From: Agelas oroides
Taxonomy: Eukaryota > Porifera > Demospongiae > Agelasida > Agelasidae
DNA: 64,000 bases
NCBI GenBank assembly: GCA_949130485.1
Contig: OX422196.1
Location: forward strand, 5,438,889-5,502,888
Reading direction: 5' to 3'
The notes below the pieces were generated by a model. That model saw nothing but the letters and a program-made list of their open reading frames with translations. It had not been told where the DNA came from and ran no database searches. The position numbers and the translations under genes are program-made. This document shows, in pieces, positions 1,500 through 57,519 of this stretch (the first letter of the stretch is position 1; each line of letters begins with the position of its first letter).

Positions 1500-2730
1500 T
1501 GAGGGTAACACTGCAAGCATTCCTGTAATGCAGAGTCAACAGCATGCCAATTTGACCAAAAAGAAACAGAGCACAGGTCTATGCTCAGTAATATAGAGAA
1601 AATTTAGTATGCATAGTTTATGTGTCTTCAACCCAAATTTATTGGTATAATCCTAGGAACAAAGCAAGTAGCAACTGGTGCATATGCAGGTTGAGACCAT
1701 ATTAAAGTAACAATGTTGAGATGGTTAGTCAGTGGAATGTCTCAGGCTGGGACCAACAGGGGAATGTTCTAACCTACATGTACAAAGCCTACTTCCACTG
1801 CAACATCTCTTGTGAAAGTTATGCTGTAACTAAAACTCCACCTGATTCACAGCACTGTCTCATAATGAGAGCTGTTCAGCTCATAATTAGTGCTGATCAT
1901 CTGACCTTCAGCCAATCAGGTGTCTAGAATTTGGTCAGGTGACTACGCTTTAAATCGCTTATGCACACTTTTTCAAGTACAAAATCAAGAGATTTCCACA
2001 AGTTTAAGGCATGAAATACAGAATGATATGCAGAGAAGTGTATTGCCGACTAAAGGTACTAAAACTGCATGCCTTCTGCGCACAGAACCGGCTGGTAAGC
2101 CTTGGATGTTGAGAATTGAAAGTGCTAAAGCGGGCATCGTTTGTGCCTAACGGATGAATGGCAAGTCTACCATTCACTTCATGGAGATGCTCAAAAGCAA
2201 GTACACAAAAAACATGGACACAACTTACTTACGAAGTGTGCGCTTACTTGCTACCTTCTTTTCAGGCTTCCGTGATGCTTCTGCCAGCTTCCCCAGCCTG
2301 TAAGCAAGTCCACTAGCATCAACAATAACAAGGACATCGATTTGAGTGGCATCCCATGCTCTCCAGACACAAATCTACCAGTCGCTAGGCCACTGCATTG
2401 TCGGCAAACAGTTCCTAATGCCATGTCTACCTTTTTGCTCACCTAAACCAGTGATAACACAATGTGCAACTGCACATCAAGCCACGCACACAGCAACAGC
2501 TCCCTCGACTGCTCGAACGTTTGATGACTCAGCAACATAAATGGTTGGCTGAAGGTCACGTAACAGCACAAAAAATAGGTAGGGCTTCATACAATTTAAT
2601 TAGTGCACTTGGATTGCATCAACCTCATGCACTAAATTTAAAATGCACGAATCCCTACCTAGAGTGTTCTAAATTTACATCATAGCCTTTAACTTATATT
2701 GAGTGTGAAACTAAGATAGTAGTTACTTAG
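1500..2730. other. No gene recognised
   Basis: Short open frames on both strands here have no recognisable domain, no clear splice structure and no repeat partner in the window. Confidence 0.45.
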
Positions 2731-3286
2731 TTCAGTTGAAGCTCTGGTTCACTCTCAGAGCATCAACCAGTTAGAACCCTTTAAACCCTGAACTTTTTTT
2801 TTCACTTGAGACTAGTCTTAGCCTATACATGCCTTTAATGCACCATATCTCTATTTCTGTCCAAGCTCTGACTCCAAAACTGAACCTAAGTCCACTTCCA
2901 GCCTTAGCAAGCAGACTCGTGACCTTAACCACGCCTACTCATTAATGGGCATGCAATAGTCAGCACTCTCGGTTGTCAAACACCCACTCAGAGCCCAAGC
3001 AGCCTTCCCTGCCAGAAATGAACCCCCTACAAGGTGAGAGTAGTGTTTTCTAAGCCTGTCCATGTAGCCAGGGCAAGAATTGGCCCACCCGGTCCCAACC
3101 ATGGCACTTTGACACCCAAACCTAGCAGTTACCATGTGCATGTCAACCTGCGGGTGACCCCACCCACCCACCCCTGTCCCACCTTTTCTGCGCAGTGTGC
3201 AGTATGATGTAACCAAAAGTGCACTATAGGGTTTAAAGGGTTACATAGCTCCAGAATCTTATTCCATCTGAGACTGTGAAATGGAG
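2731..3286 (-). pseudogene. Type B LRR exon split by a piggyBac-like MITE
   Basis: Bases 2731-2774 match the 3' half of a type B LRR exon (antisense of gctctggttcactctcag) and 3241-3286 match its 5' half with acceptor-like sequence. A 464-bp element with ccctttaaaccct/agggtttaaaggg ends lies between. The donor position reads ctaagt instead of gtaagt. The same right-hand half reappears at 20001-20045 and a fragment at 33340-33357, so the insertion predates some block duplications. Confidence 0.6.
2777..3240. mobile_element. piggyBac-like MITE, copy 1
   Basis: Ends are ccctttaaaccct and its inverse tatagggtttaaaggg. Flanking bases are degenerate relatives of TTAA. The interior matches the copies at 32862-33339 (same orientation) and 42532-43037 (opposite orientation). 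No transposase ORF. Confidence 0.65.
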
Positions 3287-3454
3287 TATACTCCAGAATT
3301 ATTACAAGTAAATGAGACAATGAGTCTGACAGTGAGTCACTAAGAATAAGTGGAGTAGAAGGAGTATGCATGGGAAAAACCGGCAATGGTTTTCATGCAT
3401 GAAGTATGCAACTGTCATGATTCCTGATAGCAAGACACTCAGGTTACAACTTAC

Positions 3455-3538
3455 TTCAGTTCTTCCAGTGACTGGTTATGTTGCAGTGCTCTGGCCAGAG
3501 CTGTGGCTCCAGTGGCAGTCAGATCATTGTTTCTGAGG
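3455..3538 (-). CDS. LRR exon, type A
   Basis: 84 nt, LRNNDLTATGATALARAL, donor gtaagt. Most distal full LRR exon I can see in the array. Confidence 0.68.
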
Positions 3539-3849: not shown

Positions 3850-3933
3850 TTCAGTGTTTTCAAGCTCGTGTTCACTCTCAGAACATCAGCCAGTGCTGGG
3901 GCTCCCTCAGATCCAATTTCATTTGATTCGAGG
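3850..3933 (-). CDS. LRR exon, type B
   Basis: 84 nt, LESNEIGSEGAPALADVL; the donor is gtacta, which departs from the family gtaagt and may be weak. Confidence 0.6.
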
Positions 3934-5050: not shown

Positions 5051-5625
5051 TGAATGAACTCGCCCACAGTTTAACGACAGAATGTATTCGTTCAGTTGCA
5101 AAAGCCTTATAGCTGACAGAATGGGACTAGGCGGCACTACGCAACATTACCTGGCAGCACAGCAAGCTATGATGAGTGTACACAGACCCGCACATTCGAA
5201 AATCTTACTCGCTTACCTGGCAAACTGACCGCTGTATATACACCCCGGAGAATATGGCTTTCAAGGTGCTCTTAAACGCCAAGGCGAACAAATGAACTCG
5301 CCCACAGTTTAACGACAGAATATATTTGTTCGGTTGCAAAAGCCTTATAGCTGACAGAATTGTACTAGGCGGCACTATGCAACATTACCTGGCAGCACAG
5401 CAAGCTATGATGAGTGTACACAGACCCGCACATTCGAAAATCTTACTCGCTTACCTGGCAATCTGACCGCTGTATATACACCCCGGAGAATATGGCTTTC
5501 AAGGTGCTCTTAAACGCCAAGGCCAAATCTTACTCGCTTACCTGGCAAACTGACCGCTGTATATACACCCCGGAGAATATGGCTTTCAAGGTGCTCTTAA
5601 ATGCCAAGGCGGCCCTTTCCTAGGC
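5050..5625. repeat. Tandem duplication of a ~240-bp segment
   Basis: The segment from gaactcgcccacagtttaac to ggtgctcttaaacgccaagg occurs twice, with a third partial copy of its last ~80 bp. Related copies are at 11190-11420, 21805-22050 and 22125-22355. Confidence 0.75.
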
Positions 5626-6685: not shown

Positions 6686-8606
6686 CTATTGCCTACTGTT
6701 GGGGTGGAGTTTAGGACATCCAGCACTCCATCGTCCTCGGTTGCGATGACCAGTACCATCACAACCAGGAACTGTGCACTTGCTTTGCTTTCTCTTCTTA
6801 GGTTCGTCTGAGATGGTGGAAGTACATCTTGAAGCTGTTGTGCGAGAGTCAAGTACAGCTGTTCTACCCAAGGGTGGCAGGTACTCTGGTCGCCGATCAG
6901 GTGCAATGAAACGATCATACATCGTGATCATGTTGGCCATTTTTTCGGCTGATAGGTCACGTGTTTGCTCCTCCTTGTATGTGGTGACAGGCTCTCCCGG
7001 AATCCCCGGTTCAATAACATGAAGAGGTGGCTCCTTCCATGCCCCAGTGAAACAGTGCTGCCGTACCTTCATGACAATCTCTCTGTTGTGCTGCCGAACT
7101 ATGAGGAAGTCATGGAGCTTGCGGACCCCTGGCAAATCTGAATATTTCTTTCCCAGTGTTCTTCGCCAGGTGAGAACATGCTCTCCATCTTCTACATACA
7201 TGTCAGCTGTTTGAGCACAGAGTGCTTGTAGCTCACTGATTGTGAACATGTCAGCTGCTTTGTAGACATTGTCAATTACTGAAAACAGCCTGTCAGGTGT
7301 AAACTTTGTGTGACCGGCTATCATAAAACTGATGTGCATGTGCTCAAGCTCACCATTCCTAACCATTTCCATTGCCCAGGCAAATAGGTAGCGATTCTTG
7401 TTGGTACTGGTGGCGTTATCAAGAAAGATGGCAAGTCGTTGCAGCCATGGGTATTGCTGGGAGATGCTGCGCCAATACATGGTGAGGAATGATATTGTAT
7501 GGTCTATATTTTTCGGCCCAATTTGCTCATCAAATGTGTACACAACGCTCTTATCTTCTCGGTGGTCCACTATGCCAAAGATATCATGTGATACCTTCTG
7601 TAGATATTGTATGTTGATCCTAGTTGTTCAGTGGCTCCCCAATTAGGAATCAACTTTGACTGCTGGTAGTCGGCACTAATCACCAGTGTAAAGCAATGCT
7701 TTAGTATCATAAGCTCCTCTCTTTCTTCCTGAGTTAAACCACCCTTCTCATCGTACTCCTTGATATCTCTCCACTGCTTTTTACACTTCTGCATACATGC
7801 CTTGTAGTATTCCCTTGCACGTGTGGCCACTGCTTTATGCTCTGCAAGATTTTCATCCAGCTGTTTCCTTTCTTCCTCCAGGCCTCTCAAGTCAGATTCA
7901 GAAGCATTGGCAGACTGTTGCAGGCAATTCTTCATGGCCTGGTTTCTGGACAGCTCCTCCTTTAGGTTTTTGCAGGTGTCACAATAGTCGGTCATGCTGG
8001 GATGAACAGCAACCTTGGGGCGATGCTTGTCAAGCCACTCAGCTGCTGCTGTTGGACCGCAGGTACCTCTTCCTTGTTCTACTTGTGCTCTGTTGAACTC
8101 TGAAACCACTGACGCTTTAGCCTTCTGATCAAAGCTCTTCTCTCCTGGTCTAGGTGGAGCAATGCGACTGAACTTGGGAATAAAGAAGAACTGAGCACTA
8201 CAGCTGCCAGCGTGCCTGCCATTTGGCTGCGAATTTAAATCCACAAACTCCAGGAAATCAGCCATCACATCAAGCTTGGAGTGATTGGAGGGACGTCCAG
8301 CAAGGCCGTGATGTTCGTATGGAAACTTCACTTCAACATCCTCATCTTCATCAAGGGACTTCCACCACATTTCAAAGGTATGCATCTCTCCATCATCTGG
8401 GCACAGTACCAAGTTTTCAAGCCTTTTCTCTGTTGCCTCTTTCTTCTTCATGATCACTATAGGTCATTGATTCATCTGCTGCTTGATGACACGTTGCCTT
8501 TGGAGACGTTCCATGTGTATGCCTGTGAATGCTGTGATACACTCTTGGCAGAAGAGCAAGTTGCCATGTGCGTCAAGGACACTTTGACGGAGCCATTGAT
8601 TTTGAG
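6686..8606 (-). pseudogene. DUF7869-like element gene, copy 1, exon 2 (decayed)
   Basis: Begins after acceptor tttttgcaag. Its first ~47 codons contain CQECITAF and HMERLQRQR. An in-frame TGA at 8464-8466 follows, shared with copy 2. The main open frame (8457-7570) holds a coiled-coil-like EERKQLDENLAEHKAV stretch, CDTCKNLKEEL and ISADYQQSKLIPNW. A shift of about two bases near 7600 moves the frame into the C-terminal half (7570-6686) with LAIFLDNATSTNKN, FMIAGHTKFTPDRLF and a C2HC finger CTVPGCDGTGH. The aspartates in ADYQQS and FLDNATSTNKN look like an RNase H-type catalytic pair, which is inference. DUF7869-like assignment is from remembered motif order. Function as the element's transposase is likely but unproven. 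Confidence 0.6.
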
Positions 8607-9594: not shown

Positions 9595-9678
9595 TTCAGT
9601 TCTTCCAGTGACTGGTTATGTTGCAGTGCTCTGGCCAGAGCTATGGCTCCAGTGGCAGTCAGATCATTGTAGCTGAGG
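9595..9678 (-). CDS. LRR exon, type A
   Basis: 84 nt, LSYNDLTATGAIALARAL, donor gtaagt. Confidence 0.68.
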
Positions 9679-9976: not shown

Positions 9977-10060
9977 TTCAGTGTTTTCAAGCTCTTGTTC
10001 ACTCTCAGACCATCAGCCAGTACCAAGGCTCCCTCAGATCTAACTCTATTTGATCCGAGG
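9977..10060 (-). CDS. LRR exon, type B
   Basis: 84 nt, LGSNRVRSEGALVLADGL, donor gtaacc; the intron has a deletion so the donor context is weaker. Confidence 0.62.
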
Positions 10061-12802: not shown

Positions 12803-14460
12803 CAGGCCCGTAGGCAGGGGGGGTTCGAGGGGGTTCGTATGAACCCCCCTTTTGGTCTCCAGTATAGTTTTATACACTAGCTAGCTCCATATTCTAACGC
12901 TATACTGATTATAACTAGTCCACATACCTGAAGAATCACAGAACACTGGTGCGGGCACGGTATTACTATACACTCAAACTCACGTGCGCTACCTGGAATG
13001 CGCGTGCGCGTGTATGCGTGTACAAATTATGTGAAATTAATTGCGCTTGTGAATGAAATCTACAAAATGAAACGGCAACATCCTAAAGACATTCAATTCT
13101 TTTTCACAAAGAAAAACAAAACTCATGGAGACTTGGAGTGTGGTAGGTGCACATGCATGCTATACCATTTTCTTCCAAATTAGTTTTCCTATGATGCCTT
13201 TCCTTCTGATATGATTTCAGAATGCTCTGATGATACAACTGCATCCTCTCAGTCAACTGAAGAATTGTGTGAGAATCCATCTGCCACTAGTGAAGAATCA
13301 TGTGACAATCTGTCAGCAGATATGCATACAACAGCAACAACAAAATTATTGGCATCTCCAGAGTCTTCAACTCCTCCTGAACCATGCCTTGACATTGGTA
13401 CAATAATAACACCAACAAAATCCATCAGTGAAATTTGTCACACAGTGGGTAATCTTTCAAATGCTGAAAAGATTTCCTTTCTACTTCAACATGTGCCCCC
13501 ACCTGCTGTTCTGCCAATTACCTTCTCACATGGCTGTAACCGAAAATTCAATATTAGCTGGCTTACCAAATATCCATGGCTAAGATACAGCCCAAAACTT
13601 GATGCGGTACTCTGTGGGCCATGTGCTCTGCTCCTTCGAGAAGTGAGCCAAAAGGACAAAGGTTGGCTTGTGAACAGGCCATTTTCTAACTGGGTGAAAC
13701 TCAGTGAGGTTCTACAGAATCACTCCAAGCTTACGTATCATCGTGATGCTGTGCAGTCAGCTGATGTATTGAAAATCAGCATTGAAAATCCAGCCTCCAG
13801 AATTGATGTGCAAATGAGCAGCTCCCTACAGTCTCAGATGGCTGAAAATAAGCACATTATTCGCCAAATTGTACGAGCTGTTCTGTTTTTGGCAAAGCAG
13901 GGTTTGGCATTTCGAGGTGACAAAGAAGATATTCATTCCCAGAAGAATCCTGGAAATTCTTTGGCCTTGCTAAACACTTTCGCTGAAACTGATAGTGTGT
14001 TGCATGACCACCTGCACAAACCCGGAGCAAAAAGTGCCACGTACTTATCTCCAACTACCCAAAGTTACATAATCAACGTCATTGGTTATGATGTGATTCG
14101 TGCTGGAATACCACTGAAGTCAGGAAAGCAAGATTCTTCTCTGTTCTTGCTGATGAAGTCTCCAGCCATAACGTAGAGCATTTAGCGTTATGCCTTCGCT
14201 TTGTTGATGAGAAGTGCGATATTCGAGAGGAGTTTGTCACATTTGTGAAACTAGAGAGGGTCAGAGCAAGTGATATCACCACTGCCATTGTCAATACCTT
14301 GGAATGACTTGGATTGTCTCTGAATGAGCTGCGAGGTCAAGGGTATGATGGAGCAGCCGCTATGAGTGGAGAAAAGTCAGGTGTGCAAAAGCAAATAAGA
14401 GACAGACAGCCAAAGGCTGTTTACACTCACTGTGCTGGGCACTCTCTCAATCTTGTGATA
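12803..14460 (+). mobile_element. hAT element (ZMYM/TTF type), truncated
   Basis: Starts with caggcccgtaggcaggg, a hAT-like terminus related to that of the 57.7-kb hAT. It carries the 5' part of a transposase. No matching right terminus was found before 15.4 kb. Confidence 0.65.
13067..14460 (+). pseudogene. hAT transposase, 5' two thirds, decayed
   Basis: Exon 1 (13067-13142) encodes MKRQHPKDIQFFFTKKNK, then a 78-bp intron (tg/gtaggt...gatttcag), then exon 2 from 13221. Exon 2 has a TTF-type zinc finger region (CNRKFNISWLTKYPWLRY, LCGPCALLLRE, LTYHRDAVQSAD), the DUF4371-like LFLAKQGLAFRGDKED segment, and catalytic-core motifs SVLADEVSSHN, GQGYDGAAAMSG and YTHCAGHSLNLV. The frame shifts by one near 14130 and an in-frame TGA lies at 14305-14307. 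Sequence after LVI at 14460 (gtgagt, a possible donor) no longer matches; the CHTRW and hATC parts are absent. Decayed plain DNA transposon. Confidence 0.7.
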
Positions 14461-17185: not shown

Positions 17186-17269
17186 TTCAGTTCTTCCAGT
17201 GACTTGTTATGTTGCAGTGCTCTGGCCAGAGGTGTGGCTCCAGTGTCAGTCAGACCATTGTATTCAAGG
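17186..17269 (-). CDS. LRR exon, type A
   Basis: 84 nt, LEYNGLTDTGATPLARAL, donor gtaagt. A proline replaces the usual Ala in the helix. Confidence 0.65.
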
Positions 17270-18581: not shown

Positions 18582-18665
18582 TTCAGTGTTTTCAAGCTCT
18601 TGTTCACTCTCAGACCATCAGCCAGTAGTGAGGCTCCCTCAGATCCAACTCTATTTGATCCGAGG
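18582..18665 (-). CDS. LRR exon, type B
   Basis: 84 nt, LGSNRVGSEGASLLADGL, donor gtaagt; 290 bp from its neighbour, like the 46.7-48.3 kb array. Confidence 0.68.
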
Positions 18666-18871: not shown

Positions 18872-18955
18872 TTCAGTGTTTTCAAGCTCTTGTTCACTCT
18901 CAGAACATCAGCCAGTGCCGAGGCTCCCTCAGATCCAATTATATTTGATTCGAGG
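18872..18955 (-). CDS. LRR exon, type B
   Basis: 84 nt, LESNIIGSEGASALADVL, donor gtaagt. Confidence 0.68.
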
Positions 18956-19707: not shown

Positions 19708-19791
19708 TTCAGTTCTTCTAGTGACTTGTTATGTTGCAGTGCTGTGGCCAGAGCTCTGGCTCCAGTGTCAGTCAGACCATTGTGTCTGAGG
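19708..19791 (-). CDS. LRR exon, type A
   Basis: 84 nt, LRHNGLTDTGARALATAL, donor gtaagt; differs from the exon at 20215 by one visible residue. Confidence 0.7.
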
Positions 19792-20000: not shown

Positions 20001-20214
20001 TTACATAGCTCCAGAATCTTATTCCATCTGAGACTGTGAAATGGAGTATACTCCAGAATTATTGCAAGTAAATGAGACAATGAGTCTGACAGTGAGTCAC
20101 TAAGAATAAGTGGAGTAGAAGGAGTATGCATGGGAAAATCCGGCAATGGTTTTCATGCATGAAGTATGCAACTGTCATGATTCCTGATAGCAAGACACTC
20201 GGGTTACAACTTAC

Positions 20215-20298
20215 TTCAGTTCTTCTAGTGACTTGTTATGTTGCAGTGCTGTGGCCAGAGCTCTGGCTCCAGTGTCAGTCAGACCATTGTCTCTGAGG
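20215..20298 (-). CDS. LRR exon, type A
   Basis: 84 nt, LRDNGLTDTGARALATAL, donor gtaagt. Paralogue of 3455-3538 and nearly identical to 19708-19791. Confidence 0.7.
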
Positions 20299-20613: not shown

Positions 20614-20697
20614 TTCAGTGTTTTCAAGCTCTTGTTCACTCTCAGAACATCAGCCAGTGCTGAGGCTCCCTCAGATCCAACTCTATTTGATTCGAGG
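20614..20697 (-). CDS. LRR exon, type B
   Basis: 84 nt, LESNRVGSEGASALADVL, donor gtaagt, acceptor ctcttccacag. Paralogue of 3850-3933. Confidence 0.7.
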
Positions 20698-26370: not shown

Positions 26371-26454
26371 TTCAGTTCTTCCAGTGACTGGTTATGTTGC
26401 AGTGCTCTGGCCAGAGCTGTGGCTCCAGTGGCAGTCAGACCATTGTCTCTGAGG
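26371..26454 (-). CDS. LRR exon, type A
   Basis: 84 nt, LRDNGLTATGATALARAL, donor gtaagt. Paralogue at offset 16776 of the exon at 9595-9678. Confidence 0.7.
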
Positions 26455-27484: not shown

Positions 27485-27568
27485 TTCAGTGTTTTCAAGC
27501 TCTTGTTCACTCTCAGAACATCAGCCAGTGCCGAGGCTCCCTCAGACCCAATTATATTTGATTCGAGG
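27485..27568 (-). CDS. LRR exon, type B
   Basis: 84 nt, LESNIIGSEGASALADVL, donor gtaagt; duplicate of the exon at 18872-18955. Confidence 0.68.
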
Positions 27569-28179: not shown

Positions 28180-29620
28180 ATCCACCTTTCAACTCACTAG
28201 TGTGGGGCTCACTCAGGCTCGCCCCAATTAATGAGACAGTAAGTATTTGACATATTATGTCGTCACTAACAGTCAGTGGAGTTAATGTGCATGAGAGAAA
28301 TAATATTACCTACCATAGCCAATAGTATACAAGTCTGTACATACTGTTCGATCCTCACATTTCCTGATAGCAAGACACTCAGGTTACAACTTACTTCAGT
28401 TCTTCCAGTGACTTGTTATGTTGCAGTGCTGTGGCCAGAGCTTTGGCTCCAGTGGCAGTCAGACCATTGTATCTGAGGCTGCAGTGGAGTACAATCAGAC
28501 AAACACACTTGAGTTACATCCGCATAAACAAATTCCATGTTTTTGTTGCTATGGCGATGACAACTCCTCATCAGCAAAAGTGCCAACAACATTTTAAGTG
28601 TCCACAATTCAAATCTTCACATCATGTTCACCACTTGGAATAGGGTTTCCACATTGTTGTACCTACTCTACTGATTACAACATTCAAATTCTCACTGATT
28701 GTCAAGACAATGTTCTACATTGTTGTTACCATAGCAACAGAATATATCAAATTGAGCTCCCTAGCTAGCTATGTACTACTTAGCATCGTTCCTAGCCTGT
28801 TAAAATCTTTTTCATGCAAGTTTAAACTGTTTAGTTCCAAAAGTCTGTAGAACCAATCAAGCTTAAAGCAAGGTCAAATGACAATTGTACAATCGTCATG
28901 ATCACAATACTGATTCCCTGGTTGCACTACTTTGGAAGCATTCGTATTATGCTTGATGGCTTCGGTTCGAATCTTCCCCTAACTTGTGCACAACTACTGC
29001 AGAACATGCAGACACAATGGTTGCTTGTACAAGAAGTAACTGAATAGAGTTACATATAAACTAGTCTTGTTCCCACACCGCAATAGTATAGTCTCGCTAT
29101 GAAGCTAAAGTCAGTCAGCTAGATCAACCTCAGAGAGCAAGTCTACTGCAAGCTGTCTCACATTTGAACTGCCACATTGTACAGGTAGGTGAGCCTTGTT
29201 GGCCAAACCAATGTGTTTGCATACTACAAGGGTCACATAACTACAAGCAAATAATTGTTACTGGTATGGGTGCAGTGCAATCTCCATGATATTGCATCTG
29301 CATATCGAATTCATGTAAGTTACCAGGCCGTTTCTCTCACAAACAGCCTGGGTATAAGGTTAATACTACAAGGGTCACATAACTACAAGTGGGTATAAGG
29401 TTAATGTACCCACTATACAGCTAGGCCTAGTCCTATGAAACAATGATGCTGTTGGATAGATCCTGTACTTCTCGGCAGCTGGCCACAATGCAAAGATGCT
29501 GGCAGTAGTACGTACGTCCTTGTAGTCCCACTGTCAGTGGTGACAACCAGTTGTAGAACACAAGCAGCCCTAGCACTAGCTTGGTGACCACTGTTTGTAA
29601 CTTTCTGCATTTTGACTATA
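28180..29620. repeat. Duplicated block D2, copy 2
   Basis: Partner of 17.0-18.4 kb; contains a small local tandem duplication of caagggtcacataactacaag near 29220-29400. Confidence 0.7.
28395..28478 (-). CDS. LRR exon, type A
   Basis: 84 nt, LRYNGLTATGAKALATAL, donor gtaagt. Lies in the block shared with 17.0-18.4 kb. Confidence 0.68.
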
Positions 29621-30125: not shown

Positions 30126-30221
30126 ACCAATGTTTTGAAGTTTGTGATCACTCTCGGATCAGCCAGTGCAGTAGCTCCCTCATCCCCAATTCTAGTCCAC
30201 TTGTATTTATCCCAATCAAGA
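30126..30221 (-). CDS. LRR exon, type C
   Basis: 96 nt, LDWDKYKW then TRIGDEGATALADPRV; ends in Val instead of Glu because the last exon base differs; donor gtaagt intact. Confidence 0.66.
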
Positions 30222-30410: not shown

Positions 30411-30494
30411 TTCAGTACTTCCAGTGACTTGTTATGTTGCAGTGCTCTGGCCAGAGCTGTGGCTCCAGTGGCAGTCAGACTATTGTCTCTAAGG
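30411..30494 (-). CDS. LRR exon, type A
   Basis: 84 nt, LRDNSLTATGATALARAL then QHNKSLEVL, donor gtaagt, acceptor cccactgcag. Confidence 0.7.
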
Positions 30495-34494: not shown

Positions 34495-34590
34495 TCCAAT
34501 GTTTTGAAGTTTTTGATCACTCTTGGATCAGCCAGTGCAGTAGCTTCCTCATCTCCAATTCCAGTCCACTTGTACTTATCCATATCAAGA
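34495..34590 (-). CDS. LRR exon, type C
   Basis: 96 nt, LDMDKYKW then TGIGDEEATALADPRV, donor gtaagt; partner of the type A exon about 200 bp upstream. Confidence 0.68.
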
Positions 34591-34789: not shown

Positions 34790-34873
34790 TTCAGTTCTTC
34801 CAGTGACTTGTTATGTTGCAGTGCTATGGCCAGAGTTATGGCTCCAGTAGCAGTCAGATCATTGTCTCTGAGG
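34790..34873 (-). CDS. LRR exon, type A
   Basis: 84 nt, LRDNDLTATGAITLAIAL, donor gtgagt, acceptor cccactgcag. Confidence 0.7.
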
Positions 34874-36012: not shown

Positions 36013-36108
36013 TCCAATGTTTTGAAGTTTTTGATCACTCTCGGATCAGCCAGTACAGTAGCTTCCTCATCCCCAATTCCAGTCCACTGGTAATCAGTCC
36101 AATCAAGA
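36013..36108 (-). CDS. LRR exon, type C
   Basis: 96 nt, LDWTDYQW then TGIGDEEATVLADPRV; acceptor ttcttattcag, donor gtaagt. Paired with the type A exon 169 bp upstream. Confidence 0.68.
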
Positions 36109-36276: not shown

Positions 36277-36360
36277 TTCAGTACTTCCAGTGACTTGTTA
36301 TGTTGGAGTGCTCTGGCCAGAGTTATCACCCCAGTGGCAGTCAGACCATTGTCACTGAGG
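36277..36360 (-). CDS. LRR exon, type A
   Basis: 84 nt, LSDNGLTATGVITLARAL then QHNKSLEVL, donor gtgaga. The acceptor region reads acccacctgcag. Confidence 0.68.
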
Positions 36361-39377: not shown

Positions 39378-39639
39378 CGGACACCGATCACTTTGTGCGG
39401 TCACCGATCTGCTCTGTGCGGTCACCGATCTTAGCGTGCGGTCACCGATCTTAGCGTGCGCTCACCGATCTGCCCTGTGCGGTGACCGATCACTCAGTGC
39501 GCTCACCGATCTGCCCTGTGAGGTCACCGATCACTCAGTGCGATCACCGATCTGCCCTGTGCGGTCACCGATCTTAGCGTGCGCTCACCGATCTGCCCTG
39601 TGCGGTCACCGATCACTCTGTGCGGTCACCGAGCAGGGT

Positions 39640-43239: not shown

Positions 43240-43335
43240 TCCAATGTTTTGAAGTTCTTGATCACTCTCGGATCAGCCAGTGCAGTAGCTCCCTCATCCC
43301 CAATTCCAGTCCACTTGTATTTATCCATATCAAGA
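43240..43335 (-). CDS. LRR exon, type C
   Basis: 96-nt exon, phase 2-2, encoding a 32-residue repeat with core WTGIGDEGATALADPRV and ending IKNFKTLE. Acceptor ttcttattcag, donor gtaagt. Type C repeats are four residues longer than types A and B. A MITE starts 13 bp upstream of the exon. Confidence 0.68.
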
Positions 43336-45530: not shown

Positions 45531-45614
45531 TTCAGTACTTCCAGTGACTTGTTATGTTGCAGTGCTCTGGCCAGAGCTGTGGCTCCAGTGGCAGTCAGAC
45601 CATTGTCTCTGAGG
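45531..45614 (-). CDS. LRR exon, type A
   Basis: 84 nt, LRDNGLTATGATALARAL then QHNKSLEVL; acceptor ccccactgcag, donor gtgagc. Matches the type A consensus exactly in the core. Confidence 0.72.
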
Positions 45615-46714: not shown

Positions 46715-46798
46715 TTCAGTGTTTTCAAGCTCTTGTTCACTCTCAGAACATCAGCCAGTGCCGAGGCTCCCTCAGATCCAATTTCATTCGATCCGAGG
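46715..46798 (-). CDS. LRR exon, type B (tandem array unit 6)
   Basis: 84 nt, LGSNEIGSEGASALADVL, acceptor ctcttccacag, donor gtaact. Last of the tandem array. Confidence 0.7.
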
Positions 46799-47044
46799 CT
46801 GTGGAAGAGAGTACTTCAGAATTAGTACAAGCAGTAAAAATATTAACGAGACAGTAAGTAATTAACATAGACATGTGTCACCACTAACAGTCTGAAAAAA
46901 TATGGTATGAGCTTAACAGCCCATGTTGACAGCAATGTACCCTATGTTCAACAGCTCTCATCAAACTAAAATCCTAGCCTTTTATGGCATGTGTTCAATA
47001 AATCCAAGCCTTTCAGTTATAAATGGTTATTATTTGGTAGTTAC

Positions 47045-47128
47045 TTCAGTGTTTTCAAGCTCTTGTTCACTCTCAGGACATCAGCCAGTGCTGAGGCTCC
47101 CTCAGATCCAATTTCATTTGATCCGAGG
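47045..47128 (-). CDS. LRR exon, type B (tandem array unit 5)
   Basis: 84 nt, LGSNEIGSEGASALADVL; spacing to the next unit is 290 and then 330 bp because the introns carry a short extra segment. Confidence 0.7.
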
Positions 47129-47334
47129 CTGTGGAAGAGTACTTCAGAATTAGTACAAGCAGTAAAAATATTAACGAGACAGTAAGTAATTAACATAGAC
47201 ATGTGTCACCACTAACAGTCTGAAAAAATATGGTATGAGCTTAACAGCCCAAGTTGACTGCAATATAAACTATGTTCAACAGCTCTCATCAAACTAAAAT
47301 CCCAATCTTTTACTTAGAGCTATTTGGCAGTTAC

Positions 47335-47418
47335 TTCAGTGTTTTCAAGCTCTTGTTCACTCTCAGAACATCAGCCAGTGCCAAGGCTCCCTCAGATCCA
47401 ATTTCATTTGATCCGAGG
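47335..47418 (-). CDS. LRR exon, type B (tandem array unit 4)
   Basis: 84 nt; same coding sequence as the adjacent unit by eye (LGSNEIGSEGALALADVL). Confidence 0.7.
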
Positions 47419-47618
47419 CTGTGGAAGAGAGTACTTCAGAATTAGTACAAGCAGTAAAAATATTAATGAGACAGTAAGTAATTAACATAGACATATGTCA
47501 CCACTAACAGTCTGAAAAAATATGGTAACAGCCCAAGTTGACTGCAATACAAACTATGTTCAACAGCTCTCATCAAACTAAAATCCCAATCTTTTACTTA
47601 GAGCTATTTGGTAGTTAC

Positions 47619-47702
47619 TTCAGTGTTTTCAAGCTCTTGTTCACTCTCAGAACATCAGCCAGTGCCAAGGCTCCCTCAGATCCAATTTCATTTGATCCGA
47701 GG
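47619..47702 (-). CDS. LRR exon, type B (tandem array unit 3)
   Basis: 84 nt, LGSNEIGSEGALALADVL, 284-bp spacing, donor gtaact. Confidence 0.7.
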
Positions 47703-47902
47703 CTGTGGAAGAGAGTACTTCAGAATTAGTACAAGCAGTAAAAATATTAATGAGACAGTAAGTAATTAACATAGACATATGTCACCACTAACAGTCTGAA
47801 AAAATATGGTAACAGCCCAAGTTGACTGCAATACAAACTATGTTCAACAGCTCTCATCAAACTAAAATCCCAATCTTTTACTTAGAGCTATTTGGTAGTT
47901 AC

Positions 47903-47986
47903 TTCAGTGTTTTCAAGCTCTTGTTCACTCTCAGAACATCAGCCAGTGCCGAGGCTCCCTCAGATCCAATTTTATTTAATTCGAGG
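47903..47986 (-). CDS. LRR exon, type B (tandem array unit 2)
   Basis: 84 nt, LELNKIGSEGASALADVL; exactly 284 bp from its neighbour on each side and with near-identical introns. Confidence 0.7.
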
Positions 47987-48186
47987 CTGTGGAAGAGAGT
48001 ACTTCAGAATTAGTACAAGCAGTAAAAATATTAATGAGACAGTAAGTAATTAACATAGACATATGTCACCACTAACAGTCTGAAAAAATATGGTAACAGC
48101 CCAAGTTGACTGCAATACAAACTATGTTCAACAGCTCTCATCAAACTAAAATCCCAATCTTTTACTTAGAGCTATTTGGTAGTTAC

Positions 48187-48270
48187 TTCAGTGTTTTCAA
48201 GCTCTTGTTCACTCTCAGAACATCAGCCAGTGCCGAGGCTCCCTCAGATTCAATTTTATTTAATTCGAGG
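48187..48270 (-). CDS. LRR exon, type B (tandem array unit 1)
   Basis: 84 nt, LELNKIESEGASALADVL, donor gtaact. First of the 284-bp tandem array. Confidence 0.7.
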
Positions 48271-48595: not shown

Positions 48596-48679
48596 TTCAG
48601 TGTTTTTAAGCTCTGGTTCACTCTTAGAGCATCAGCCAGTGCAGTAGCTCCCTCAGATACAATTTCATTCCCTCTGAGA
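48596..48679 (-). CDS. LRR exon, type B
   Basis: 84 nt, reads LRGNEIVSEGATALADAL. The acceptor is tcttcttgcag and the exon begins with T instead of C, still giving Asn at the junction. Donor gtaaga. Most diverged of the B exons near NACHT. Confidence 0.68.
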
Positions 48680-50412: not shown

Positions 50413-50496
50413 TTCAATTCTTCCAGTGACTTGTTATGGTGCAGTGCTCTGGCCAGAGCTGTAGCTCCAGTGTCAGTCAGACCATTGTTTCTGAGG
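50413..50496 (-). CDS. LRR exon, type A
   Basis: Type A repeat of 28 residues, LRNNGLTDTGATALARAL then HHNKSLEEL. Acceptor ccccactgcag, donor gtaagt, phase 2-2, 84 nt. Type A exons share the GLTATGATALARAL core. Confidence 0.72.
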
Positions 50497-51448: not shown

Positions 51449-51532
51449 TTCAGTTTCTGCAAGCTCTGGTTCACTCTCAGAGCATCAGCCAGTGCAGTGG
51501 CTCCCTCAGATCCAATACTATTTGATTCGAGG
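51449..51532 (-). CDS. LRR exon, type B
   Basis: An 84-nt exon, phase 2 at both ends: one base completes the incoming codon, 27 codons follow, and two bases start the next. It encodes a 28-residue ribonuclease-inhibitor-type LRR (LESNSIGSEGATALADAL). The acceptor is tctcttccacag, donor ctgaa/gtatgt. Type B exons share the SEGA-ALAD core. Confidence 0.7.
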
Positions 51533-51696: not shown

Positions 51697-51771
51697 TTCA
51701 GTTCTTCCAGTGACGTGTTACATTGCAGAGCTCTGGCCACAGCTATGGCTCCAGTAGCAGTCAGACGGAGG
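51697..51771 (-). CDS. LRR exon, type A, 9 nt short
   Basis: First LRR exon after NACHT. It is 75 nt instead of 84 because nine bases near its 5' end are missing, which keeps the frame (LRLTATGAIAVARAL). The acceptor is cactgaag rather than the usual cactgcag, the donor gtaagt. It may be weakly used. Confidence 0.5.
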
Positions 51772-53133
51772 CTTCAGTGGGGTATAAACAGACAAACACA
51801 TTCGAGTTAGATCCACACTAACTATGTTTCTGTTGCTACGGCAATGACCTGAGCATCAGAGAATCACAGCATGGGCTTCCATCGGTATTTGTTGAGGCCA
51901 TAACTCAATCCCATACGTCAGATCCCCACAAACAGCGTCTCAGTATGGGGGCTAGTCAATTGGCATTGTTGTTGCCACAGCAACAGAATGTGGACTTACC
52001 ACTACTTTTGCATACTGTATAGCTGAATTTTCAAGGGATTAAACTTTCATGAATGATCAAATAAAAAAGCTTCTATCAAACATTTTCGCAGATGACATAA
52101 TCTACCAGGTATTATATATAGTGTGCACGTGCATGCTCATTCATATTTACGTATGTCTTGACACTTATGCAGCTAGCTTCGCCATGCAATCACACATATT
52201 TAAGAGATGGAGTTTCAAGCCAAAACAGAGCTCTGGCCACAGCTATGACTCTAATAGCAATCAGATGGAGGCTGCAGTGGGTACAATTAGACACAAACAC
52301 ACTCGAGTTAGATCCACACTAACCATCTTTGTTTTTTTTTGCTACGCATCACAGTGATAACTACTCTGCCTTGTACTCCTGTGAGATTTTGGTGTAACTT
52401 CCCTCAGTCATTTTCTGGGTGGTTAGTGCAATTCTTGTTCACAGCAGTGATGACTCTGGAATCTACAAAGATCCTGATGGATCAGGAAGATCGTTAGCTG
52501 GATGAAGGTATCTATACCAGCTGCCAAGTAGTCAACTATGTACGTAGTTGCTCATGGTCATCAAGATTGGGTGTGGCTTACTAGAATGGGCAGGGCAAAT
52601 GTTAACCATTGCTGGAATATATTTTCACGGAAGACCTTTTACCTGCGAAATGCACAAAATTAAAGTACCAACAAAAATTTAATGGAAATGCCATGTTTCT
52701 GTTGCTACAACTACTTACTACTAATGGTGAATGATAAACATAACCTATGATGCTGATGCAAATAGGTAAATCCCAAAAACATGGATCCAGAGATGGGAAC
52801 AAGGTCACTTCCACTAAACAGTTGTGGAATTTTGGCTAGCCATCATTAGGCATAATGTGAAATGAGTCCTCCTAGGATGTAGTATGAACATTACTACTGC
52901 ATGTACTACTAACAAACAGTATCCAATTTGTGAACATATCAGTTGATGCATGGGTACAGTACAACCTTCCACTATGTCTTCTTCATTTAACTTGCTTGAT
53001 ATACTGCAAAGAAGTGTTACTTGAGTGTCTTCCACTATGCCTATTATCTATCTATGGAGTACAGTACAGGGAGTGACCGTAACTGGATTAATCACAAGAG
53101 GCTGAGAATTCATTGACCAATACTATAGCTTAC
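51772..53133. other. Intron after NACHT exon
   Basis: Contains one degenerate type A exon (52226-52280) and no other recognisable element. Confidence 0.5.
52226..52280 (-). pseudogene. Degenerate type A LRR exon
   Basis: Antisense sequence matches the ALARAL core of a type A LRR exon (agctctggccacagct) and its ctgcag acceptor, but the downstream half and donor are missing. Probably a dead exon copy. Confidence 0.45.
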
Positions 53134-54658
53134 CAAAGATGCTTAATGCCGCTGTGATCATCACGCCAAGCACCTGCAACAAGAAATTTTGAGAATTCCC
53201 TCATAGCTTGTGCTCCTAAGAAGCATTTGTTGAGGACCACTACATGGGGATTTTGCATGTGTGGAAGACAATGAAGAATACTGTGGATGTCACGTGTGGT
53301 GACAACTGCACTGCTAACTTCAGTTGTTAGGGAAGAAAGATCTGTTTGCTGTTCAGTTGTCACATATTCAGTTTCAGTTAAACAATCCGTTAATCTTAAA
53401 GCATTTCCTTTATAGTACTGTTTTAACAGATTCGTAATGTTGGTTTCGGCTCCAAGACCAGCAATGAAACACCAGAAATAAGCAAATTCGTCCTTGTACC
53501 TCAGTGATAGTTTCTTGCGATCAGGATTGAGGAGAGTTTCCACTGCCAAACAAAAATCTTGAAGATAAGGTACAGTGGAATTACGATCTGCTAGTTCACA
53601 GTTACACTCCTCATTATCATAGATTAGTGATTTGCCAATTGTTGCAATTACGTTTCCTGAGTCCTCAATGGTTTTCCTGCCACTTTCCAGTAAAATATTC
53701 CTGAACTGAGACTGCAGTGGATCAGTACTAAACATTTCATAGAGCTTCCCCTTGTGCCATTCATTGACCAACACTACCAGAGAGGTGTACAGTTGGGTCC
53801 ATGTCACAGGAAGGTCATCATATGAAATGCGAGCAAAAACATACATGGTTCCAATCAGGTAACTAGGTGATGAAACAAGTGATTCCACTTGTGGGTTTCC
53901 AGCAAGATAACTCAAGAAATCAGATGCTCTCTTATCGTCAAAATGTTGAATAACTTCCTTTCCAATTTGTTGATTAGTTAATCCAAGAATCTCAAACTGG
54001 ATGAAGTTACCTTCAATAAAATGTGAACATGTAGTGGCAACAACTACTGTGGATTCGGAGAAATTGCTGCGGCCAGACAAAATACTGAACAGCACATCTC
54101 CATACGGTTCCAGAGGTGATTGAAAGAGATATTCATGGCAAAAACCGTCAAGTATAAAAAGGACTCCCTTTCCTTTCTCTGCTTTAATCCAGCGACAAAT
54201 CGTTTTGCTTACTACAGTGCTGCCTTTGAGCTGTCTGTCAATCAATTCTTGTATTGAGCAACCTTGGTGCAGATCCCAGATGTTAACATAAAGGATTAGT
54301 GAAAATCCTCTCAATGCATAATGTTTAGCCCAGCTGCGGCATAATCTAGATAATAACTCTGTTTTACCACATCCTGGGGGCCCTTTGACAACAAACACAC
54401 GGCTTTCTCTTTGTGCAATTTTGTTCAGCATAGACTTCATGGACAGCTCCTGGATCTCAGAGGGAAACTGGTCCATCATCTCATAGCAGGAAGTATAGTC
54501 CAGTTGAGACAAAAGAGGAGCATTTTGGACAATTCCAAACCTTCGATTAAAGTTTGATAGTTTAGGAGCACCAGACCATAGCTTCCTTTTTGAAAATGAG
54601 TCTTTCAGAAACTTCTGTCGTAAAAACTCACAGGCTCCTTGGACTTCAGTGATACTAC
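53134..54658 (-). CDS. NLR gene, NACHT NTPase exon
   Basis: A 1525-nt exon (acceptor ccttaacttag, donor ctttg/gtaagc) that encodes a NACHT STAND NTPase. The P-loop GPPGCGKTELL lies near 54383-54350. A Walker B-like strand VLFILDGF follows about 70 residues later, and a sensor strand VVVATTCSHF after that; the helical remainder includes LPVTWTQLYTSLV and YFWCFIAGL, typical of the NACHT-associated helical part. The acidic pair that usually follows Walker B is replaced by CHEYL, which is worth noting. The exon enters in phase 1 and leaves in phase 2, matching the phase-1 upstream exons and the phase-2 LRR exons. NLR proteins of this kind act in the cytoplasm as nucleotide-switched sensors. Identification as an NLR NACHT domain is strong; ligand unknown. 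Confidence 0.85.
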
Positions 54659-54722: not shown

Positions 54723-56918
54723 CTTGTAAATGTATCAGTAGTTCTTCAGCATTGTGAAGGTGTCCATGTCTTAACAAAAATTCAAGAAGACCCTCATTAG
54801 TAGCATTGTTTACATTCACTCTCTTCCAGCACAGAAGGGCCATATACTTCTGTTCCTCTTCATTTCCAGTCTCTTCTAACTCCTTCTCACTGATCCCAAG
54901 ATATGAAGCCAAGTCTTTCCAGCTTCGCATCTTCCTTGAAAATATCTTTAGGAAATCATTTGAACAAATTTCTTGGAGCTTGCCTGCGGGAGTGCTTGTG
55001 ATGAGATCATTCAAATGACGGACAGCTTCTCCACTTGTCTGTTTCATTTCTTCTTCAGGAATGAAGTGTTCCAGTCCAAGGACCTTGACTCTCCTCCTGG
55101 TGTCTTCTCCGACAGTTGCTACAGTCTGTACACTGTATAGCTTCTGAATGTTGTCTGCAACTGTGTCATAGTCAACCTCTAACCTTTGGACACCTCTTCC
55201 AGCTAAGATTTCCAAGTCTTCCTCACAGAGTTCCCCAAATATTCCACTGATAGATTTCGGAATGAGGAATGTGAACTGGTGAGTGGTGAATCCTCCTTCC
55301 CAGTGGGCATAAATGATGAAGTCTTGATCAATTCCTGTGGCCTTCTCCACTGCTTCTCTCACTACTTGTATGTCACCCAGTGTCCATTCAATCGCACTAC
55401 CACCACCACGGGTCACTCGCAGCTTTTGAAATTCTTTAAATTCTGAGATTTCTTCCTCGGACAGAGGGTCTGGGAGAGTGGAGAGTTTAGTATGAGAGGG
55501 AAACCTACTTTTGTACAACTGAAATATAGATGTCATCTCAATGTCAAAAGCATCAGCAACCTTCCAAAGAACACCCCAGTTAAGGAAGTTTAGGACTTGG
55601 GGCTGCAAAATGGTGAATATTTGTGGGACAGACTCTGCATTTTTCAGGATCCTGGGATCAATGTACCGAGCTTCTGGATATAAAACATGGGTGAAACTTT
55701 GCAAGAATTTTTTCAGCTGGATAACTTCTACTGTTTTTTTCCCTACTTCAGAAATGAGTTGCTGAAATTCTGAGTTGTAATGGGCTGTTTTGGGGGAGTC
55801 ATGAGTTAAGGGGACTCGCTTCATTCCAGCAGTAGTGTAGGTGGATTTATCAGTTTTAGCATCTGGCTGTGGTATATCAGTCTTGGACTCTGCCAGTGAT
55901 GTACTAGTCTTGGACTCTGCCAGTGATATACTGGTCTTGGACACTGCCAGCGATGTACCAGTTTTGGACACTGCCAGTGATGTACCAGTTTTGGACACTG
56001 CCAGTGATGTACCAGTTTTGGACTCTGCCAGCGATGTATCAGTCTTGGACTCTGCCAGCGATGTACCAGTCTTGGTCTCTAGCTGTGATATATCAGTCTT
56101 GGACTGGGCCTGCAATGAATCAGCCTTGGTCTCTGTCTGCAATGTGTCAGTTGTAGTCTCTGGCTGTGATATATCAGTCTTGGACTCTGCTTGCAAAGAT
56201 TGCAGGTCTATGACTACATCGGCATTCACTTCAACTCCGAGGATGCCATGATCAGCTAGGTCCCTTTGATTGTCTGCACTGAGACTACTGAAGCAACTGA
56301 CCACAGTTTCTGGGATGAGAAAAGTAAATAAGACACACCCTGACATCTGATTGGAGTAGACAATCATACTCTCATCAACTCGTGTGTTTCTACTGATGGT
56401 TTGTTGCACCCTTTTGACATCCTCCATAGTGGTTGTGTGAACATCCCCTTCAGACTTGACTTTCACCTTCTTGGTTCCACTAAATGCATCTATCTCTTCA
56501 TCTGATAATGGGTCACACATCCGTTTGAGTGGTTTCTTTTGAGGAAAGTTATCTTCATACTGTTTCAGGAGTGTTTTTGATTGCTCATTTCCAAACATAT
56601 TGACAATTATCCTCAAGAGATCAGTGTGCATGTAGTGGATGTAACATGGAAAGAGTGCCTCAATGATCTCTCTTGGAGTTCTACAGTGCTCATAGAGCTT
56701 ACTGTCAATATATCGTTGACGGGTGTGAGGATGGCACAAGAATTTCAAAAAGTCTTTTAGACTCTCCACATCAGCTGATTCATTGAGCAGTTTAACTACC
56801 TTGGTAAGCATGATGGAAAATTGCATAGGTAAATCCAATTCTTCATAGCTGATGGATTTCTCAGATTCTGCAGTTTTAAATGTAGGATTGGTCGATTTCC
56901 CAGATTCTGCAGTTTTAA
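54723..56918 (-). CDS. NLR gene, large exon: two related modules, 10-residue repeats, second Death domain
   Basis: A 2196-nt open exon (732 codons, phase 1 at both ends). In order it encodes a first ~200-residue module (about 55775-56840 region upstream of the repeats, with motifs DPLSDEEID, VKRVQQ and FTFLIPETVV), a run of about a dozen 10-residue repeats of the SLAESKTGT/SLAVSKTGT type, a second copy of the same module (DPLSEEEISEF, GDIQVVREAV, FTFLIPKSISGIF), and a C-terminal Death-like domain ending in LLEFLLRHGHLHNAEELLIHL. The acceptor is tttttccctacag and the donor is caag/gtcagt. The modules resemble a unit I recall from many predicted sponge proteins; its function is unknown to me. 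The following exon carries the NACHT domain, so this is the sensor/adaptor-binding half of the same receptor. Confidence 0.75.
55851..56170 (-). repeat. In-frame 30-bp coding minisatellite in the NLR linker
   Basis: Within the large NLR exon a 30-bp unit encoding ten residues (consensus SLAxSKTGT plus one) repeats about a dozen times, degenerating at both ends to DTLQTETKAD and DIPQPDAKTD types. All units stay in frame and lack stops. The peptide is Ser/Thr/Lys rich and likely a disordered linker between the two modules. Neighbouring central units are nearly identical, so copy number is probably variable. Confidence 0.8.
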
Positions 56919-57065
56919 CTGTAGGGAAAAACAAAAGTGAATCATATTTCAAACAAAGGAAACCTACTTTACAACAGTAACTTGCTGACATTTTAATTTG
57001 ATGCACATATACTCATTCAGAAAATGTCTACAGCATCTTGATGATATAAATGGTATGTAAATTAC

Positions 57066-57359
57066 CTGTATGTCTCTTTGCTATGGTCTCTGCTAAAGCA
57101 GTATTATTCCCTCCAGCTGGATCATCCACAGCCTCCACCAGCATTCTCCAGGTGGGATGACCACATCTCTCATAGTTGTAAGACTTCTGGAGCCACTTGG
57201 TCAGCACCATTCGAAGACAGCGCTTGCAATCATCACCTTTAGTTTCTTTGCGGATAGTTTCTTCATGTAATATTGGCAAGTTGAGAGCACAGCAAATGTC
57301 TGACCATCTGGGAGCTAAGTTGAGCACTTCTTTATACACTTCAAATAGGTTATCGTCAG
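57066..57359 (-). CDS. NLR gene, exon encoding N-terminal Death domain
   Basis: This exon encodes about 98 residues that read as a Death-fold domain of the sponge NLR kind. Visible landmarks are a helix around LAPRWSDICCALNL, a CKRCLRMVLTKWLQ helix, and the HPTWRMLVEAVDDP segment followed by LAETI, the usual order for a Death domain that recruits adaptors by homotypic contact. The acceptor is a pyrimidine run ending ttttccag and the donor is acag/gtaatt. Both boundaries are phase 1, and the next exon starts in the same phase. The exon therefore needs an upstream start exon, which I could not find; the sequence just upstream is a MITE and a hAT insertion. Splice sites are predicted by eye. Domain identity is fairly sure, the partner protein unknown. 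Confidence 0.75.
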
Positions 57360-57519
57360 CTGGAAAAAGTACAAATACCAAAACCTTTCAACAAAACACA
57401 AAACATTGGACAAACATTGGTAGGGAGAGCAATTCCAGGTCTAAAAACATATCACAGCTTCAGCAGCATGCATATCATAGGTTGGTAGATACTACACATC
57501 TAATCGTCCAGTTTATCAT

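What the first reader, a model, noticed from the sequence alone, without database searches (positions are those of the whole stretch)
2700..57400. An NLR receptor gene trailed by 30 full LRR exons across about 50 kb, all skippable in frame
The sequence shows 30 full-length stop-free LRR exons and one 75-nt exon on the same strand downstream of a NACHT exon, none on the other strand. Each is 84, 96 or 75 nt and phase 2-2. Any subset or order gives an open protein. This is what a combinatorial receptor (splicing choice of LRRs, as Dscam does with Ig exons) would need. That use is inference; the alternative is one gene plus NACHT-less duplicate blocks.
Basis: partly seen in the sequence, partly recalled or inferred. 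Interest (0 to 1): 0.9.

Follow-up and report, generated by a model that had tools for sequence, protein, structure and literature searches.

The report
Immune receptor gene with giant repeat-exon array
An animal immune-sensor (NLR) gene is followed by 31 similar, interchangeable exons that each encode one leucine-rich repeat; the exons look functional and appear to be selected to differ from one another, but whether the animal mixes them by splicing is not shown.

Summary
On the minus strand, downstream of a Death/TRADD-N-like exon and a NACHT exon (57.4-53.1 kb), lie 30 full LRR exons (26 of 84 nt, 4 of 96 nt) plus one of 75 nt, all phase 2-2, open and AG/GT-flanked. Spliced in order onto NACHT they give 1,402 codons without a stop. 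No further copy was found within 100 kb either side. The architecture recurs: two paralogues on another contig (C16) have their own Death-NACHT exons, followed by 30 and at least 73 matches to these exons. The exons look selected: scaffold residues almost never change, exposed residues change in excess, indels are nearly absent, and in the three longest non-overlapping block duplicates exons differ about three times more than their introns (5 of 13 block pairs go the other way). The combinatorial (Dscam-like) reading fits but has no transcript evidence; in-order inclusion in one long LRR domain is at least as likely, because A-type and B/C-type exons alternate. One-LRR phase-2 exons are known in NOD/NLRC genes, brown-algal ROCO genes and Tetrahymena LRR genes. 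This is a new variant of that kind.

The parts
57066..57359 (-). upstream coding exon (about 97 codons), conserved in a C16 paralogue, no Pfam match
   Evidence: 53% aa identity to C16 over 104 aa; splice boundaries read by eye; Pfam 0 families
54723..56918 (-). exon with TRADD-N-like region and Death domain, with a coding 27-nt repeat between
   Evidence: Death 5.8e-9; NCOA6_TRADD-N 2.4e-4, just below its cut-off; boundaries by eye; minisatellite 55875-56190
53134..54658 (-). NACHT exon, ends in phase 2 inside the start of an LRR (IKHL-C-L)
   Evidence: PF05729 1.6e-11; G106, P107, G111, K112 of GPPGCGKT invariant in 15 aligned sequences; donor at 53134
52194..52271 (-). diverged A-like LRR copy, open over 78 nt, poor donor GTGATT; status uncertain
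51697..51771 (-). LRR exon A, 75 nt (three codons shorter)
51449..51532 (-). LRR exon B, 84 nt
50413..50496 (-). LRR exon A, 84 nt
48596..48679 (-). LRR exon B, 84 nt
46715..48270 (-). six tandem B exons of 84 nt (starting 48270, 47986, 47702, 47418, 47128, 46798), about 284-bp unit, all with GTAACT donors
45531..45614 (-). LRR exon A
43240..43335 (-). LRR exon C, 96 nt
36277..36360 (-). LRR exon A
36013..36108 (-). LRR exon C, 96 nt
34790..34873 (-). LRR exon A
34495..34590 (-). LRR exon C, 96 nt
30411..30494 (-). LRR exon A
30126..30221 (-). LRR exon C, 96 nt
28395..28478 (-). LRR exon A
27485..27568 (-). LRR exon B
26371..26454 (-). LRR exon A
20614..20697 (-). LRR exon B
20215..20298 (-). 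LRR exon A
20015..20064 (-). broken B exon: acceptor region and 5' start (exon from 20033) running into the MITE-like insert; duplicate of the one near 3260
19708..19791 (-). LRR exon A
18872..18955 (-). LRR exon B
18582..18665 (-). LRR exon B
17186..17269 (-). LRR exon A
9977..10060 (-). LRR exon B (GTAACC donor)
9595..9678 (-). LRR exon A
3850..3933 (-). LRR exon B (GTACTA donor)
3455..3538 (-). last intact LRR exon, A
2718..3304 (-). last B exon of the array (exon start 3273), split by a MITE-like insert of about 480 bp with inverted ends; the corresponding exon on C16 (4907325-4907242) is open

Best explanation
This is one NLR gene (Death/TRADD-N-like - NACHT - LRR) whose LRR domain is encoded by a greatly expanded array of single-repeat, phase-2 exons on one strand. 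The array grew by duplication of blocks (often one B or C exon plus one A exon) and by a six-copy 284-bp B tandem. Selection keeps the scaffold residues and the frame while exposed residues diversify. The pre-mRNA is most likely one long unit whose exons are spliced in genomic order into a long RI-type LRR solenoid; skipping, favoured at exons with weak donors, would change repeat number without breaking the frame. Shown: anatomy, frame compatibility, signs of selection, block duplication, recurrence in paralogues. Inferred: a single transcription unit, in-order inclusion, and ligand recognition as the cause of the diversification.
For: 31 of 31 intact exons on one strand, phase 2-2, open, with splice sites. 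Distinct variants at scaffold codons: A type 0 amino-acid changes against 6.6 expected (P 3.5e-4), B type 1 against 7.6 (P 8e-4); at exposed codons 21 against 12.6 (P 5.5e-4) and 22 against 14.2 (P 0.003). In the three longest non-overlapping block duplicates exons differ at 23/336 sites and introns at 165/6,907 (odds ratio 3.0, P 1.7e-5; this subset was chosen after seeing the table). Eight exon pairs in such blocks have 48 nonsynonymous and 3 synonymous differences, 46 of the 48 at exposed codons (pairs overlap). Indels: 2 in 2,279 exon sites against 146 in 15,659 intron sites, 21 expected. A versus B/C alternation. Short colinear matches in the 3' flank shared with C16 gene 2. Two C16 paralogues with their own Death-NACHT exons head same-strand arrays of 30 and at least 73 hits.
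Against: No transcript, so neither a single unit nor use of distal exons is shown. Pooled dN/dS is near 1 (A 1.24, B 1.16, C 0.89), and synonymous variants are as numerous as expected. Over all 13 block pairs the exon excess is small (131/2,279 = 5.75% against 711/15,659 = 4.5%, P 0.013), and in 5 of 13 exons are less diverged than introns. Gene conversion among exons may inflate exon differences. Eight of 14 B donors lack G at +5. No terminal coding exon was found. 73 or more repeats in one solenoid (C16 gene 1) would be extraordinary. Sense AATAAA motifs in the array are not significantly depleted (17 against 25, P 0.28).
Confidence: 0.6

Rival explanations
1. Combinatorial receptor: each transcript (or cell) keeps a different subset of LRR exons by stochastic or regulated skipping, or ends early by intronic polyadenylation, so one gene makes many receptors.
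For: All 31 exons skippable in frame. 28 of 31 encode different repeats. Excess of exposed changes between exons of one array. Eight of 14 B exons lack G at donor +5. 29 of 31 donors, if unspliced, read into an immediate in-frame stop, so almost any exon could end the protein cleanly. 73 or more exon hits behind one NACHT in a paralogue seem too many for one solenoid (inference). Precedent: brown-algal ROCO genes with one 72-bp phase-2 exon per LRR and up to nine splice variants (PMC11378527, passages).
Against: No transcript. Frame preservation and the donor stop follow from phase 2 plus a GTRAGT donor and need no special use. All 17 A and C donors have G at +5. The A versus B/C alternation is not needed if exons are chosen freely.
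Confidence: 0.25
2. Only the proximal exons are used; the distal array is a germline reservoir that feeds new repeats into the gene by unequal crossing-over and gene conversion.
For: Block duplications of up to 3.6 kb at 90-98% identity; four-gamete violations within exons (A 3 of 15 site pairs, B 8 of 21); A exons almost as similar between contigs C14 and C16 (9.1% different) as within C14 (8.2%), while B exons are not (23.1% against 8.9%, 7 A and 5 B exons of C16 sampled).
Against: The block pairs with a nonsynonymous excess and no exon indels are distal (3.4-28.5 kb), so distal exons seem to be seen by selection on protein. Most distal donors are GTAAGT.
Confidence: 0.12
3. Somatic DNA assembly from LRR cassettes, as in lamprey VLRs (recalled).
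For: LRR cassettes next to a receptor gene in an animal that presumably lacks B and T cells (inference).
Against: All 31 cassettes carry splice sites and lie in one orientation, which splicing needs and copy-choice assembly does not. No recombination signal was sought.
Confidence: 0.02

Closest known systems
Vertebrate NOD/NLRC genes (Hoss et al. 2019, PMC6642158; abstract and two results sections read)
   Same: One 28-aa LRR per exon, exon border at the same place in the beta strand, frame-preserving; splice variants observed (NLRP3 exon 5).
   Different: Here 31 similar copies over 49 kb (73 or more hits in a paralogue), with recent block duplication and exposed-site diversification; Death/TRADD-N-like N-terminus.
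Brown-algal LRR-ROCO genes (Teng et al. 2024, PMC11378527; passages read; Zambounis 2012 not read)
   Same: Arrays of phase-2 single-LRR exons, shuffling, diversifying selection; alternative splicing shown there.
   Different: 72-bp exons, ROC-COR GTPase instead of NACHT, unrelated lineage; splicing not shown here.
[quoted passage not shown] passages read)
   Same: Tandem arrays of uniform phase-2 LRR exons, clonal expansions, transposons nearby.
   Different: 90-bp exons, mostly purifying selection reported.
Dysidea avara NLRs (PMC12909245; abstract, passages and section 3.5 read)
   Same: Expanded NACHT-LRR family including DEATH-NACHT-LRR; a cluster with 15-30 LRRs.
   Different: The terms exon, intron and splic do not occur in its main text, so exon architecture is not described; a different, larger genome (575 Mb).
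Insect Dscam (recalled; mentioned in PMC11378527)
   Same: Duplicated, frame-compatible exons in one gene as a potential isoform source.
   Different: Ig exons chosen mutually exclusively per cluster (recalled); nothing of the kind tested here.

Membership tests
NLR (NACHT + LRR) receptors | NACHT domain with Walker A | tested here: met
   PF05729 1.6e-11; G106, P107, G111 and K112 of GPPGCGKT invariant in 15 aligned sequences
NLR (NACHT + LRR) receptors | C-terminal RI-type LRRs in the same protein | tested here: inconclusive
   LRR_6 matches on joined exon peptides, ribonuclease inhibitor and NLR chains among the best PDB matches, phase-compatible with NACHT; joining in mRNA not testable
NOD/NLRC-type one-LRR-per-exon genes | 84-bp (28 aa) frame-preserving LRR exons split at a fixed place | tested here: met
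   26 of 31 are 84 nt, 4 are 96, 1 is 75; all phase 2 at the LxxL|x split
Dscam-like combinatorial splicing | many isoforms from one gene | not testable with these tools
   no RNA data; protein searches returned no spliced close relative
Dscam-like combinatorial splicing | mutually exclusive choice with docking/selector sequences | not tested
   none
Brown-algal LRR-ROCO | ROC-COR domain | tested here: not met
   Pfam lists NACHT and Death, no Roc or COR family
VLR-type somatic assembly | cassettes without splice sites, joined in DNA (recalled) | tested here: not met
   31 of 31 cassettes carry AG/GT splice sites in one orientation; joining in DNA itself was not testable

The most novel reading that the evidence does not exclude
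An animal NLR family in which tens of one-repeat exons per gene, kept in frame and selected to differ, are spliced in varying combinations to make a somatic repertoire of intracellular receptors from germline arrays.
Probability: 0.25. Interest if true: 0.92.

Novelty: new variant of a known kind. Interest (0 to 1): 0.66.

Why it matters
It gives a concrete, sequence-defined place to test whether an animal uses germline LRR exon arrays to diversify NLR receptors, by splicing within a life or by block duplication between generations. In the longest duplicated blocks the exons differ about three times more than their own introns, almost only at exposed residues: a sign of recognition-driven diversification inside single genes. 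At least three such Death-NACHT genes with arrays exist in this genome (the window and two on C16), and similar exon clusters lie on contigs C1, C4, C7 and C8.

Tried and rejected
Transposon-borne LRR copies: rejected as the main cause, since copies share intron flanks in colinear blocks, although DUF7869/DDE and hAT/DUF4371-type elements lie among or beside them. Separate NLR genes within the window: rejected; the window's NACHT and Death exons match nothing else in the window (a 27% NACHT match lies about 20 kb outside, opposite strand). More LRR exons outside the window: none found in 100 kb either side. A terminal coding exon: the conserved 3' flank aligns to C16 with stops in all frames, so it looks non-coding; unresolved. 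PolyA-motif depletion on the sense strand: not significant. C16 as one 200-kb gene with about 100 exons: rejected; a second Death-NACHT unit sits at 4.952-4.956 Mb. Of the five largest exon-free gaps in the remaining 118-kb array, three hold no NACHT match (5077-5085 and 4999-5007 kb; 5091.6-5097.9 kb); 5029.8-5035.3 kb and 5085.7-5090.0 kb were not read, nor were smaller gaps, so 73 or more exons for one gene is likely but not proved. Spliced relatives in the protein database: none found (the 120 listed of 333 hits are 27-50% identical RI-like proteins; 2 hits in the full-length range; both searches scored only about 8,000 candidates). Taxon: not determined.
Full report
WHAT IS THERE. The window (C14:5438889-5502888 of a 259-Mb assembly) carries on its minus strand a NACHT exon (54658-53134; PF05729 1.6e-11). 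It is preceded by an exon with a Death domain and a weak TRADD-N-like match just below its cut-off, and by a further conserved exon without a Pfam match. Downstream, between 51.8 and 3.4 kb, a mechanical scan for AG-[75/84/96 nt open in phase 2]-GT shows 31 LRR exons in three sequence types: A (12 of 84 nt and one of 75), B (14 of 84) and C (4 of 96). Nucleotide profiles of each type and an A/B protein profile over six frames find no other full copy and none on the plus strand. Nearest NACHT, at 52271-52194, an A-like repeat is open over 78 nt but diverged and with a poor donor; the two C16 paralogues also have short diverged repeats just after NACHT. Two B copies are broken: one split by an insert of about 480 bp with inverted ends (3273-2718), and a duplicate of its 5' half (from 20033). 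Joined exon peptides match LRR_6, and a 12-exon join has ribonuclease inhibitor and NLR chains among its best PDB matches. The NACHT exon ends in phase 2 inside an LRR start, and NACHT plus the 31 exons in order read 1,402 codons without a stop.

SIGNS OF SELECTION. Pooled dN/dS is unremarkable (A 1.24, B 1.16, C 0.89), but the changes are not spread evenly. Among distinct variants, scaffold codons carry 0 of 29 (A) and 1 of 33 (B) as amino-acid changes against 6.6 and 7.6 expected, and exposed codons 21 and 22 against 12.6 and 14.2. The scaffold set was taken from the recalled RI consensus after seeing the variability, and variants were treated as independent. Synonymous variants are as expected (8 against 8.9; 9 against 10.3). 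One B variant scores as a stop when taken alone; no actual exon has a stop. In 13 block-duplicate alignments exons have 2 indels in 2,279 sites (both in one A/C alignment whose exons are of equal length) and introns 146 in 15,659. Substitutions over all 13 are 131/2,279 in exons and 711/15,659 in introns (P 0.013). Exons are more diverged than introns in 8 of 13 pairs and less in 5 (the 1,500-, 844-, 812-, 1,293- and 927-bp alignments; the 1,500- and 812-bp ones are the B tandem). In the five longest pairs, which share exons, exons differ at 51/672 sites and introns at 295/10,251. In the three of those that do not overlap, it is 23/336 against 165/6,907 (odds ratio 3.0, P 1.7e-5; subset chosen after seeing the table). 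The differences in eight exon pairs of these blocks (overlapping) are 48 nonsynonymous, 46 of them exposed, against 3 synonymous. For an illustrative 2 synonymous of 23, with 26% expected, P is 0.04. Gene conversion may contribute: four-gamete violations in 3 of 15 (A) and 8 of 21 (B) site pairs.

RECURRENCE. DNA and pattern searches of the genome show 158 A-type and 342 B-type motif hits (reversed-motif control 0 and 0). The listed ones (about the first hundred of each) fall in clusters that are mostly on one strand; on C16, 55 of 55 listed A hits are minus (count). At C16:5.113-5.118 Mb a paralogue with the same exon structure (NACHT exon 66% identical) heads a same-strand array. From an exon-free gap at 4.947-4.989 Mb I expected a second NACHT and found it at 4.952-4.956 Mb (65% identical). 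Tallies of profile, DNA and pattern hits are 30 for the second gene (4.907-4.947 Mb) and 73 for the first (4.989-5.107 Mb). They are lower bounds as to hits, but most of these exons were not read for open frames. Two of the five largest gaps and all smaller ones were not read in full, so a further NACHT there is not excluded. Of 14 C16 exons that were read, 12 (7 of 7 A, 5 of 7 B) are open with AG/GT at 84 nt. The 3' flanks of the window array and of C16 gene 2 share short matches in the same order (window 2674-2772, 1860-1891, 991-1071 and -128 to 163; the third touches a tandem repeat) and one inverted match. This suggests that the array lies between ends that the two loci share; it is moderate evidence. 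B exons are locus-specific (8.9% within the window, 23.1% between loci), whereas A exons are almost as similar between loci as within (9.1% against 8.2%), which suggests exchange of A units between contigs.

HOW IT MAY WORK. Shown: frame-compatible exons, kept splice sites, and uneven change. Inferred: one transcription unit and in-order inclusion. The order of A against B/C exons (the six-copy tandem counted once) has 3 same-type neighbours of 25, shuffle mean 12.0, P 0.0002, as in the alternating repeats of ribonuclease inhibitor (recalled) or as left by duplication of two-exon units. Donors: all 17 A and C exons have G at +5; 8 of 14 B exons do not, so skipping is plausible there. 29 of 31 donors, if not spliced, give an immediate in-frame stop, so early polyadenylation would end the LRR domain cleanly; this follows from phase 2 and GTRAGT and is not evidence by itself. 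Sense AATAAA motifs are not significantly depleted (17 against 25).

COMPARISON. One 28-aa LRR per frame-preserving exon is the usual NOD/NLRC layout, and LRR exon skipping occurs in human NLRs (PMC6642158, two sections read). Arrays of phase-2 single-LRR exons with shuffling, diversifying selection and alternative splicing are reported in brown-algal LRR-ROCO genes (PMC11378527, passages), and uniform 90-bp phase-2 LRR exon arrays in Tetrahymena (PMC6564038, passages). Zebrafish NLR genes also have single-exon LRRs, 0 to 6 of the variable type in most groups (PMC4852459, passages). The Dysidea avara NLR paper reports a cluster with 15-30 LRRs but no exon architecture (PMC12909245). In the rows listed by searches (titles and starts of abstracts; 6 to 20 rows each) I saw no paper describing such arrays in sponge or other invertebrate NLRs; most subscription papers are not held. 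I therefore call it a new variant of a known kind.

DATABASE RELATIVES. The NACHT exon has 159 matches at E <= 0.001 (120 listed). Ninety of those listed, one of them the window's own protein, are 54% or more identical, nearly all from unnamed ENA contigs. A search in the length range of full receptors gave 2 matches.

Noticed in passing
window 55875-56190 (-): In-frame 27-nt minisatellite (11.7 copies) inside the Death exon, encoding 9-aa repeats (SKTGTSLAV-like) between the N-terminal domains.
   Followed up: no
window 54723-56918 (-): The exon seems to hold two diverged copies of a roughly 210-280 aa region ahead of the Death domain, one of them with the TRADD-N-like match (cross-matches of 29-30% identity with a C16 paralogue).
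   Followed up: partly
window 58274-60067 (+) and 13184-14173 (+): hAT-type transposase remains (Dimer_Tnp_hAT 1.1e-9 and DUF4371 5.6e-21; the second only DUF4371 0.0012, below its cut-off).
   Followed up: partly
window 6689-8463 (-) and 23448-25239 (-): Two copies of a DUF7869/DDE-like element inside the array (family match made on the first copy); they lie in a 3.6-kb block duplicated at 97.7% identity together with an LRR exon.
   Followed up: partly
window 38066-41107: Two 41-bp satellite arrays (about 30 and 34 copies) with complementary consensus units, meeting near 39635, inside one LRR intron.
   Followed up: no
C14:5418395-5419078 (+), about 20 kb left of the window: Another NACHT-like stretch, 27% identical, on the opposite strand.
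   Followed up: no
C16 against C14 arrays: A-type LRR exons are nearly as similar between the two contigs as within one (9.1% against 8.2%), while B-type exons and NACHT are strongly diverged: possible interlocus exchange of A units.
   Followed up: partly
C16 5112468, 5111885, 4951282, 4950539 and window 52271-52194: Short diverged LRR repeats just after the NACHT exon in all three loci; perhaps a conserved first-repeat type that the A, B and C profiles only half match.
   Followed up: partly
C7 2.885-3.28 Mb (-), C8 9.33-9.78 Mb (+) and 7.02-7.09 Mb (-), C1 21.95-21.97 Mb (+): Further clusters of listed B-type motif hits on one strand, spanning up to about 450 kb; the genes that head them were not identified.
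   Followed up: no
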